Shown here: positions 91 to 3,328 of the stretch, piece after piece
How the letters are laid out: each line of letters opens with the position of its first letter
Numbering within the stretch: the first letter of the stretch is position 1
Program-made: the position numbers and the translations under genes
NCBI GenBank assembly: GCA_947631215.1
Contig: CANRKN010000046.1
Location: forward strand, 1-14,846
Direction of reading: 5' to 3'
From: an uncultured Oscillospiraceae bacterium
GTDB lineage: Bacteria > Bacillota_A > Clostridia > Oscillospirales > Oscillospiraceae
Length of the DNA: 14,846 nucleotides
The notes under the pieces: generated by a model
Database searches by the model: none
Told to the model about the DNA's origin: nothing
What the model saw: only the letters and a program-made list of their open reading frames with translations

Positions 91-1305
91 TTATGCGTTC
101 ACACTCTCCACCAGGGCGTTGGCCAGGTTCTCCAGCTCCGCGGCCTTGTCCTCCTTGAGGGAGGAGGCCAGGGAGAGGCGCTCGTTGAGGAGCGTCATGT
201 TTTTGAGCTGGTCGGTGATGAACGCGCTCATGAGGTCGCCGGACTTGACGGCCCAGGAGCCGTTTTCGATGACGGCGAAGGTCCGGTTCTGCAGGTTCAG
301 GGCCTTCATGTCCATGAGGAAGTTGTGCATCACCGGGTAGATGCCCAGGTTGTAAGTGACGCTGGCCAGGACGATGTGGCTGTACTTGAACGCCTCGGCG
401 ATGAGGTAGCTCACGTGGGTGTTGGACACGTCGTACACCGCCACGTTGGTCACGCCCTTCTCGCACAGCTTGCTGGCCAGGCACTGGGCCGCGGCCTCGG
501 TGTTGCCGTACATGGAGGCGTAGACGATGAGCACGCCCTTCTCCTCGGGCTCATAGCGGCTCCACTTGTCGTACTTGTCGATGAAATACCCCAGGTCCTT
601 GCGCCACACCGGCCCGTGGAGGGGGCAGACGAACTTGATCTGGTCCAGGATGCCGGATGCCTTTTTGAGCAGCAGCTGGATGTGGGGGCCGTACTTGCCC
701 ACGATGTTGGTGAGATACCGGCGGGCCTCGTCCAGCCAGTCCCGGTCGAAGTCCACCTCGTCGGCGAACAGCTTGCCGTCCAGGGCGATGAAGGAGCCGA
801 AGGCGTCGGCGGAGAACAGCACCCCGTTGGTGGTGTCGAAGGTCACCATGGCCTCGGGCCAGTGGACCATGGGGGCCGCCACGAAGGTGACGGTGTGGTC
901 GCCGAAGGAGAAGGTGTCCCCCTCCTTCACGGAGATGAGCTCATGGCCGTCCACGTGGAAGCCGAACTGGCGCATGAGGAGGAAGGCCTTGTCGTTGGAG
1001 ATGATCTTTACCTTGGGCCAGCGCAGCAAGATCTCCTCGATGGACGCGCCGTGGTCGGGCTCCATGTGGTTGATGAGCAGGTAATCCAGGGGCTTATCCC
1101 CCAGCAGGAACTCCATGTTCTCGATGAGCTGCCGGCAGGCGGACCAGTCCACGGTGTCGAACAGGACCGTCTTCTTGTCCAGCAGCAGATAGGAGTTGTA
1201 GCTCACGCCCTTGGGGATGGGGTGGATGTTCTCGAAAAGGGTCAGGCGGTGGTCGTTGGCGCCCACCCAGTAGAGCTTATCGGTAACTTCTCTTACGCAA
1301 TGCAT
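91..1305 (-). CDS. fprA: FprA-family flavodiiron protein (A-type flavoprotein)
   Basis: 404-aa cytoplasmic flavodiiron protein, a family that reduces O2 to water (some members reduce NO) with electrons usually delivered by rubredoxin. The N-terminal metallo-beta-lactamase-like domain (about 1-250) carries the di-iron ligands: H80-x-E82-x-D84-H85, H148 (in MVHWP), D167 (in SADAFG) and H230 (in PLHGP). The C-terminal flavodoxin domain (about 257-404) has the FMN phosphate loop SMYGNTEA at 264-271. Length is the usual size for the minimal class A architecture, with no extra C-terminal module. The start is preceded by AAGGAGA about 8 bp upstream. The gene follows the ACAD/ETF/rubredoxin fusion by 21 bp and no promoter is visible between them, so they should be co-transcribed. 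The upstream fusion's rubredoxin domain is the obvious candidate electron donor (inference). O2 versus NO specificity cannot be read from the sequence. Confidence 0.95.
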   Translation of the reverse strand: MHCVREVTDKLYWVGANDHRLTLFENIHPIPKGVSYNSYLLLDKKTVLFDTVDWSACRQLIENMEFLLGDKPLDYLLINHMEPDHGASIEEILLRWPKVKIISNDKAFLLMRQFGFHVDGHELISVKEGDTFSFGDHTVTFVAAPMVHWPEAMVTFDTTNGVLFSADAFGSFIALDGKLFADEVDFDRDWLDEARRYLTNIVGKYGPHIQLLLKKASGILDQIKFVCPLHGPVWRKDLGYFIDKYDKWSRYEPEEKGVLIVYASMYGNTEAAAQCLASKLCEKGVTNVAVYDVSNTHVSYLIAEAFKYSHIVLASVTYNLGIYPVMHNFLMDMKALNLQNRTFAVIENGSWAVKSGDLMSAFITDQLKNMTLLNERLSLASSLKEDKAAELENLANALVESVNA

Positions 1306-1326
1306 ATGTCATATCTCCTTTCCGTC

Positions 1327-3237
1327 TTACGCCTGGATGAACTGGTCCTTACCCTCGCCGCACTCCGGGCACACCCAATCCTCGGGCAGCTTGTCGAAGG
1401 TGGTGCCGGCGGGGATCTCCGCGTTGGGGTCGCCCTTTTCGGGGATGTACTCGTAGCCGCAGCCGCCGCACACATACCGGGGGCCGATGGGCTCCGGCTT
1501 GGGCGGCGCGGGCCGCTTGATCTTCACCATGGGCGGGGCGGGCTTCTTCTTGCCGGTGCCCAGGGCCTTGGTGAGAAGCGGCAATATCTCGTTCACGTCG
1601 CCCACGATGCCGTAGTCGCAGTTTTTGAAGATGGGCGCGCCGGCGTTGGTGTTGATGGCCACGATGGTGCTGGCGTCCTTGATGCCCTTCAGGTGCTGGA
1701 TGGCGCCGGAGATGCCGCAGGCGATGTACAGGTTGCCGGTGAACTTCTGGCCGGACATGCCCACATAGCGGTTCAGGGGCACGTATTTCAGCGTCTCGGC
1801 CACGGGACGGCTGGAGCCGATGGCCGCGCCGGCGGCGTGGGCCAGGTCCTCGATGAGCTTCATGTTCTCCTTGGGGCCGATGCCCTTGCCGGCGGATACC
1901 ACCCGCTCGGCCTGGGCGATGGGCGTGTCGGCGGGGATGCCCACGGTGAAGTCGTAGCCGTCCTTTTTGAGCGCCGCCACCAGGGCCTCCACCTTCTCTT
2001 TGGCGTCGCCCTCCCGGAAGATGGTCTTTTTCCGCACGCCGGTGATGGGGGCGGGCTTCTTGGGGGCGCTGCCTCCGCCGCCGGCGGACTTGGGCGCCTT
2101 GCCCAGGATGGCCGAGGAGATGACCACCCGCTGTATCTCGTTGGTGCCCTCGTAGATGGTGGTGATCTTGGCGTCCCGGTAGGCCCGCTCCACCTCCATG
2201 CCCTTCATGAAGCCGGCGCCGCCGTGGATCTGCAGGGCGTCGTTGGTGACCTGCAGGGCGATGTCGGAGGCATACATCTTGGCCATGGCCGCCTCCATGG
2301 CGTAGGGCTCGTGGTGCTCTTTGAGCTCCGCGGCGGAGTAGACCAAGAACCGGGCGCAGCGCAGCTTGGTGGCCATGTCCGCGATCTTGAAGGACAGGGC
2401 CTGCTGGAAAGCGATGGGCTTTCCGAACTGGATGCGCTCCTTGGCGTAGGCCACGGCGTTCTCATAGGCCCCCTGGGCGATGCCCAGCGCCTGGGCCGCG
2501 ATGCCGATGCGGCCGCCGTCCAGAGTGGCCATGGCGATCTTGAAGCCCTGGCCCTCCTTGCCCAGCAGGTTCTCCTTGGGCACTTTCACGTCGTTGAAGA
2601 TCAGCTCCGCCGTGGTGGAGGAGCGGATGCCCATCTTATCGTAGTGGTCGCCGAAGTCGAAGCCCTTCCAGCCCTTCTCCACGATGAAAGCGCTGATGCC
2701 CCGTGTGCCGATGTCCGGGGTGGTGACGGCGAAGACCACGTATGTATCCGCCTTGGGGGCGTTGGTGATGAATATCTTGCCGCCATTGAGAAGATAATAG
2801 TCCCCCTTGTCCACGGCGGTGGTCTCCGTGCCGCCGGCGTCGGAGCCCGCGTTGGGCTCGGTCAGGCCGAAGGCGCCGATCTTCTCGCCCTTGGCCAGGG
2901 GCACCAGATACTTTTTCTTCTGCTCCTCGGTGCCGAAGGCGAAGATGGGGTAGCTGCCCAGAGACACGTGGGCGGACAATATGACGCCCGCGCCGCCGTC
3001 CACACGGGCCAGCTCCTCCACGGCGATGGCGTAGCTGAGCACATCCAGGCCCGCGCCGCCGTACTCCTTGGGGTAGGGGATGCCCATGAGCCCCATCTGG
3101 CCCAGCTTTTTCACGGCCTCGTCGGGGAACTCGTTGGCCTGATCCAGGGCGAAGGCGATGGGCTTGATCTCCTCCTCCGCGAACTGGCGTATTTTCGCAC
3201 GCAGGGCCTCGTGCTCCGGGGTCGTCTGATATAACAT
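1327..3237 (-). CDS. Acyl-CoA dehydrogenase / ETF-alpha FAD-domain / rubredoxin fusion
   Basis: 636-aa three-part flavoprotein. Residues 1-380 are a complete acyl-CoA dehydrogenase of the butyryl-CoA type: FGLTEPNAGSDAG near 123-135, the ERIQFGKPI region near 267-275, and IYEGTNEIQR at 361-370 where E363 matches the catalytic base. A Gly/Pro/Lys linker (380-400) leads to an ETF-alpha C-terminal FAD domain (about 401-560) with RVVSAGKGIG, SSRPVAET, YVGMSGQ, GISGAIQHLKG, INTNAGAPIF and DYGIVGD. The ETF-alpha N-terminal domain is absent, and no ETF-beta gene is in the window. After a second Lys/Pro linker comes a rubredoxin (588-636) with C590-x2-C593 and C623-P-E-C626. An upstream in-frame ATG at 3288 lacks a ribosome site and sits almost on the predicted transcription start. 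The ATG at 3237 has AAAAGGAGGAGC ideally spaced. Direct electron relay to the neighbouring flavodiiron protein is inferred. Acyl chain length is uncertain. Confidence 0.93.
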   Translation of the reverse strand: MLYQTTPEHEALRAKIRQFAEEEIKPIAFALDQANEFPDEAVKKLGQMGLMGIPYPKEYGGAGLDVLSYAIAVEELARVDGGAGVILSAHVSLGSYPIFAFGTEEQKKKYLVPLAKGEKIGAFGLTEPNAGSDAGGTETTAVDKGDYYLLNGGKIFITNAPKADTYVVFAVTTPDIGTRGISAFIVEKGWKGFDFGDHYDKMGIRSSTTAELIFNDVKVPKENLLGKEGQGFKIAMATLDGGRIGIAAQALGIAQGAYENAVAYAKERIQFGKPIAFQQALSFKIADMATKLRCARFLVYSAAELKEHHEPYAMEAAMAKMYASDIALQVTNDALQIHGGAGFMKGMEVERAYRDAKITTIYEGTNEIQRVVISSAILGKAPKSAGGGGSAPKKPAPITGVRKKTIFREGDAKEKVEALVAALKKDGYDFTVGIPADTPIAQAERVVSAGKGIGPKENMKLIEDLAHAAGAAIGSSRPVAETLKYVPLNRYVGMSGQKFTGNLYIACGISGAIQHLKGIKDASTIVAINTNAGAPIFKNCDYGIVGDVNEILPLLTKALGTGKKKPAPPMVKIKRPAPPKPEPIGPRYVCGGCGYEYIPEKGDPNAEIPAGTTFDKLPEDWVCPECGEGKDQFIQA

Positions 3238-3298
3238 AGATGCTCCTCCTTTTGCATGGTGTTCGCTCTGTGGGGTCTCGCTTTGCATAGGTGAAGAT

Positions 3299-3328
3299 AT
3301 TTTAGCGCCCTTTTGGCATTTTTGTCAA
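3299..3328 (-). promoter_or_regulatory. Sigma-A type promoter of the ACAD fusion-fprA operon
   Basis: On the minus strand a perfect -35 TTGACA (3328-3323) and a -10 TAAAAT (3304-3299) are separated by 18 bp. Transcription would start near 3292, leaving a leader of about 55 nt that contains the AGGAGG site. This supports the 3237 start over 3288. Confidence 0.75.

What the first reader, a model, noticed from the sequence alone, without database searches (positions are those of the whole stretch)
91..3328. Self-contained acyl-CoA to oxygen electron line: ACAD/ETF-alpha/rubredoxin fusion next to a flavodiiron protein
One promoter drives a protein that joins an acyl-CoA dehydrogenase, the swinging FAD domain of ETF-alpha and a rubredoxin. 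A flavodiiron protein, the standard acceptor from rubredoxin, lies 21 bp downstream. The domain order equals the expected electron path: acyl-CoA, ACAD FAD, ETF FAD, Fe(Cys)4, FMN, di-iron, O2. This could be an oxygen-scavenging system fed by acyl-CoA oxidation in an anaerobe. Alternatively the rubredoxin may feed electrons into enoyl-CoA reduction. I do not know whether this has been described biochemically.
Basis: partly seen in the sequence, partly recalled or inferred. Interest (0 to 1): 0.8.

Follow-up and report, generated by a model that had tools for sequence, protein, structure and literature searches.

The report
Butyryl-CoA-fed oxygen reductase of anaerobes
This two-gene unit belongs to an oxygen-removing enzyme system described in 2024 that takes its electrons from the fermentation intermediate butyryl-CoA; it is not new, but one related group of bacteria keeps the unit after losing the ligands of its middle iron site, which is unexpected.

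Summary
Bases 3237-1327 (-) encode a 636-aa acyl-CoA dehydrogenase / EtfA FAD-domain / rubredoxin fusion; a flavodiiron protein (FDP) follows after 21 bp, between a promoter-like and a terminator-like site. The proposed refutation fails: 31 of 31 three-domain fusions in a 391-genome class sample have the FDP downstream.

What may be new lies in relatives. In a genus that protein names identify as Anaerococcus, 29 of 29 genomes with the pair have all four rubredoxin cysteines replaced by Asp-Ser-Ser-Ser (also 67 of 68 such proteins; the other ends before the domain), while the domain stays conserved (dN/dS about 0.09) and the FDP stays next door. Some further copies lack the rubredoxin; 6 of 12 read lie beside a second FDP. 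Either the iron relay is dispensable there or a free rubredoxin, found in 31 of 31 genomes, replaces it.

The parts
3299..3328 (-). promoter-like site TTGACA-18-TAAAAT
   Evidence: consensus scan, 11 of 12
1327..3237 (-). BCR: acyl-CoA dehydrogenase / EtfA C-terminal FAD domain / rubredoxin fusion, 636 aa plus stop
   Evidence: Pfam, PDB relatives, relatives of the same layout
2104..3237 (-). short-chain acyl-CoA dehydrogenase (Bcd-like) part, Glu363
   Evidence: best PDB relative 5ol2_C, 6.1e-145
1564..2025 (-). EtfA C-terminal FAD domain region (residues 405-558), without EtfA domain I
   Evidence: PF00766; 1efp_A, 5ol2_A, 1efv_A matched only at their C-terminal part
1330..1479 (-). rubredoxin domain, Cys590/593/623/626
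   Evidence: PF00301; 1e8j and others; Cys count
91..1305 (-). two-domain (class-A type) flavodiiron protein, 404 aa, H80 E82 D84 H85 H148 D167 H230
   Evidence: Pfam; 1ycf, 1e5d; conservation
37..64 (-). terminator-like hairpin after the FDP gene
   Evidence: scan, 12 pairs with T run

Best explanation
The locus is a two-gene operon for butyryl-CoA:oxygen oxidoreductase (BOOR). BCR oxidises butyryl-CoA (or another short acyl-CoA) to the enoyl-CoA on its first FAD; electrons pass to the FAD of the tethered EtfA domain, then to the C-terminal Fe(Cys)4, then to the FMN and di-iron site of the FDP, which reduces O2 to water. The cell removes oxygen with a weak reductant that its own fermentation supplies, sparing NADH; the crotonyl-CoA can return to Bcd-EtfAB. 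Shown here: gene order, domains, residues, neighbour conservation. Shown by others for Fusobacterium: activity and complex. Inferred: same activity, substrate and electron order for this copy.
For: Domains and residues; FDP downstream on the same strand in 31 of 31 three-domain fusions of a 391-genome class sample and in 76 of 80 close loci, the other 4 ending at a contig edge; the nearest held genome has enoyl-CoA hydratase, 3-hydroxyacyl-CoA dehydrogenase, acyl-CoA dehydrogenase, EtfB-like and EtfA-like genes in a row and an RnfC_N match; published work on the Fusobacterium pair, read in a review and two later papers.
Against: No enzyme assay of this copy. Identity to FN1424/FN1423 was not measured (their sequences were not reached). 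In Anaerococcus the pair persists without the Fe(Cys)4 ligands, so that step is not universal. The own assembly is not held; the pathway genes are from a relative sharing 57% of the window's sampled words.
Confidence: 0.9

Rival explanations
1. The pair is mainly a nitric oxide reductase fed by acyl-CoA.
For: The FDP structures nearest by sequence carry the names nitric oxide reductase or flavorubredoxin; PMC13404960 links the pair in other gut Clostridia to an Rrf2 regulator resembling NsrR and RisR.
Against: The Fusobacterium complex is reported to show no NO reductase activity. Scores against the two flavorubredoxin equivalogs are far below cut-off (215 of 635 and 195 of 711 bits).
Confidence: 0.05
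2. The fusion runs the other way: electrons from elsewhere reduce enoyl-CoA through rubredoxin during fermentation, and the FDP is incidental.
For: Bcd-type ACADs can work in both directions (recalled); four rubredoxin-less relatives lie between a 3-hydroxyacyl-CoA dehydrogenase-like and a CoA-transferase-like gene.
Against: 31 of 31 three-domain fusions of the class sample have the FDP downstream; a separate bcd-etfB-etfA cluster exists in the nearest held genome.
Confidence: 0.05

Closest known systems
Butyryl-CoA:oxygen oxidoreductase (BOOR; FN1423-FN1424) of Fusobacterium nucleatum, Bystrom and Wolthers 2024
   Same: Same domain order, same bicistronic FDP partner, same role; stated to occur in gut Firmicutes.
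Bcd-EtfAB complexes of anaerobes (PDB 5ol2; 4l1f with 4kpu)
   Same: Bcd and EtfA FAD domains are among the closest relatives by sequence.
   Different: No EtfB and no EtfA domain I in the fusion, hence no place for a bifurcating EtfB flavin; the expected acceptor is rubredoxin and FDP.
Rubredoxin:oxygen oxidoreductase (1e5d) and the FDP 1ycf (organisms Desulfovibrio and Moorella recalled)
   Same: Two-domain FDP, fed by a rubredoxin centre (recalled; for Moorella).
   Different: For most FDPs studied the electron source is a reduced pyridine nucleotide, here an acyl-CoA.

Membership tests
BOOR | BCR: Bcd + EtfA C-terminus + rubredoxin in one chain | tested here: met
BOOR | bicistronic with a two-domain (class-A) FDP | tested here: met
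   21-bp gap, same strand, two Pfam parts only; promoter- and terminator-like sites by consensus scan; no transcript data
BOOR | active-site residues: ACAD Glu, EtfA FAD site, four rubredoxin Cys, di-iron ligands | tested here: met

BOOR | butyryl-CoA pathway with Bcd-EtfAB and Rnf in the host | tested here: inconclusive
   met in nearest held genome G001; own assembly not held
BOOR | likeness to FN1424/FN1423 by sequence | not tested
BOOR | alpha4beta4 complex, butyryl-CoA-dependent O2 reduction, no NO reduction | not testable with these tools
   needs enzymology; reported for Fusobacterium
Bcd-EtfAB | EtfB and EtfA domain I (PF01012) present | tested here: not met
   no PF01012 in the fusion
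Flavorubredoxin (NorV type) | rubredoxin fused to the FDP; equivalog score | tested here: not met

The most novel reading that the evidence does not exclude
In Anaerococcus the BOOR line works without its rubredoxin iron: the Cys-less domain is kept by selection as an iron-free docking arm that brings the EtfA FAD to the FMN of the FDP, and rubredoxin-less copies beside a second FDP have gone one step further. The Fe(Cys)4 relay of BOOR, the window's included, would then not be strictly needed for acyl-CoA-driven O2 reduction.
Probability: 0.35. Interest if true: 0.6.

Novelty: already known. Interest (0 to 1): 0.35.

Why it matters
It adds one more member, apparently from an Oscillospiraceae lineage (nearest named locus L001), to an O2-consuming, butyryl-CoA-fed system, and shows by counting that the FDP partner goes with the three-domain fusion. 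The Anaerococcus variant is a natural experiment: the iron ligands are gone from an otherwise intact gene pair, so the need for Fe(Cys)4 between two flavins can be tested directly.

Tried and rejected
Rejected: chance or misread frame (80 loci encode relatives at 81-99% identity over all or nearly all of the length). Rejected: undescribed system. Rejected: a decaying rubredoxin in Anaerococcus. The four replaced positions are D, S, S, S in 29 of 29 genomes while the Ser codons vary (TCA, TCT, AGC, AGT), and the median pairwise dN/dS of the domain (0.091) is near that of the EtfA part (0.086) and below linker 1 (0.329); linker 2 is also low (0.117). Control: in 59 cysteine-bearing family rows the rubredoxin/EtfA values are 0.165/0.138, a like ratio (simple Nei-Gojobori, saturated pairs dropped, so rough). 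Against iron binding I have only the ligand argument; an unusual metal site is not excluded.

Not settled: whether a free rubredoxin stands in. All 31 Anaerococcus genomes have one (30 loci read, 30 with CxxC...CxxC; the 31st seen as a table row only), but so do G001 and G629 with intact BCR, so its presence discriminates nothing. Seven FDP positions and nine BCR positions besides the four Cys are fixed in Anaerococcus and rare elsewhere; not interpreted. AlphaFold models of the window's BCR and of P0131 (mean pLDDT 81.8 and 81.9, pTM 0.68 and 0.63) give folded parts and weak linkers; domain placement was not used and no fold search was run.

Papers: of PMC12288474 I saw passages and section 8, of PMC13404960 passages and section 13, of PMC12630350 passages; other titles only as listings. 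The primary paper 10.1021/acs.biochem.4c00279 is not held, so whether it mentions the Cys-less form is unknown. Searches for that form: Anaerococcus + rubredoxin (one paper listed, not opened) and two phrase searches with no hits.

Full report
What is there. The minus strand from 3328 to 37 holds a promoter-like site, a 636-aa fusion (start ATG 3237, stop ending at 1327), a 21-bp gap, a 404-aa FDP (1305-91) and a terminator-like hairpin. Pfam gives acyl-CoA dehydrogenase, ETF_alpha and rubredoxin in that order, then ODP beta-lactamase plus flavodoxin. By sequence the ACAD part is closest among solved structures to 5ol2_C, whose entry also holds EtfA; the middle part matches only the C-terminal FAD domain of EtfA chains; the last part is an ordinary rubredoxin; the FDP is closest to chains called nitric oxide reductase (1ycf), flavorubredoxin and rubredoxin:oxygen oxidoreductase.

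Residues. In an alignment of the window with 120 rows from 121 loci (one short row, L143, left out; a few genomes appear twice, such as G001 and G093), ACAD Glu363 is 121 of 121; EtfA R477, S495, H515 and N529 are 121 of 121 and D547 is 116; the four rubredoxin Cys are 114 or 115 of 121, the exceptions being truncated or rubredoxin-less rows and two rows from one genus; the seven FDP di-iron-type residues are 109 of 109 rows of at least 85% length.

Partner test. Of the 80 best loci in named genomes, 76 have the FDP downstream on the same strand (75 within 400 bp, L028 about 475 bp) and 4 end at a contig edge. In a 398-genome phylum sample five genomes show the full fusion and one (G093) a rubredoxin-less one (at most three candidates were scored per genome, so this is a lower bound).

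Known or not. The system is BOOR. [quoted passage not shown] PMC13404960 reports the pair beside an Rrf2 regulator in gut Clostridia; here the gene upstream is an Hsp20. The nearest held genome, G001 (57% of sampled words; own assembly not held), has enoyl-CoA hydratase, 3-hydroxyacyl-CoA dehydrogenase, acyl-CoA dehydrogenase, EtfB-like and EtfA-like genes in a row and an RnfC_N match, so butyryl-CoA is likely at hand.

A surprise among the relatives. The two rows without rubredoxin Cys (L138, L140) come from one genus. Of 31 held genomes of that genus 29 have the full fusion; 29 of 29 have Asp-Ser-Ser-Ser at the four Cys positions and the FDP 5-13 bp downstream. Names given to nearly identical proteins identify it as Anaerococcus. 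Among the 235 proteins held from two searches (best 120 listed each) plus the window, 67 are DSSS (P0121-P0187), 167 CCCC, one is CCCF (P0065) and one, an Anaerococcus-like 559-aa protein (P0188), ends before the domain. In the family (130 genomes, 89 with a match), 58 genomes are CCCC, 29 DSSS and 2 have only a rubredoxin-less fusion; the FDP is next in 58 of 58, 29 of 29 and 1 of 2 (one genome fetched twice is counted once). On a FastTree tree of the ACAD+EtfA part, midpoint-rooted, the 33 DSSS rows form one clade (support 0.999) beside two CCCC rows (0.926). This fits a single loss of all four ligands; I saw no intermediate.

The Cys-less domain does not look decayed: median pairwise dN/dS is 0.091, against 0.056 for ACAD, 0.086 for EtfA, 0.329 and 0.117 for linkers 1 and 2; in 59 cysteine-bearing family rows, a more diverse set, the values are 0.165 (rubredoxin) and 0.138 (EtfA). 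ACAD Glu363, five EtfA residues and the seven FDP residues checked are unchanged in 29 of 29. Pfam still scores the domain as rubredoxin (6.4e-14 in L138).

Rubredoxin-less copies. Eighteen rows are rubredoxin-less second or third copies in this genus; I read 12 of the 18 neighbourhoods. Six are divergent from a second FDP (40.6-44% identical to the window's), one (L211) has another ORF in between, four lie between a 3-hydroxyacyl-CoA dehydrogenase-like and a CoA-transferase-like gene (L142 checked by Pfam; the other three judged by likeness of the sequence), and one (L203) has no FDP in the stretch read. The six divergent FDPs and the one in L143 keep the seven residues, 7 of 7. Outside the genus I saw rubredoxin-less fusions in G720, G093, G834, G825 and G838; of these only G825 has an FDP next to it.

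Reading. For the window: ordinary BOOR, confidence 0.9. Either FAD-to-FMN transfer is direct with the domain as a dock, or a free rubredoxin, present in all 31 genomes, carries electrons, or substrate or acceptor has changed. I cannot choose by sequence.

Noticed in passing
L172-L200 (29 Anaerococcus-type genomes), rubredoxin domain of BCR: All four rubredoxin cysteines replaced by Asp-Ser-Ser-Ser in 29 of 29, with the rest of the domain conserved and the FDP still adjacent.
   Followed up: partly
L141, L142, L145, L202-L212, L265, L271, L272: Acyl-CoA dehydrogenase/EtfA fusions without rubredoxin, some divergent from a second FDP, some between 3-hydroxyacyl-CoA dehydrogenase-like and CoA-transferase-like genes; electron acceptor unknown.
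   Followed up: partly
L143, about 4626-5846: A shortened, interrupted ACAD/EtfA fusion beside a divergent FDP gene in G735.
   Followed up: no
window 9855-10572 (-): An ABC-transporter ATPase seems split over two overlapping frames (10572-10258 and 10307-9855). Only the second was scanned against families; the first is judged from its Walker A-like motif (recalled).
   Followed up: no
window 5045-7398 (-): DUF711 (PRK05313) gene next to an ACT-domain protein gene, whose start overlaps the end of a TrmO-like gene.
   Followed up: no
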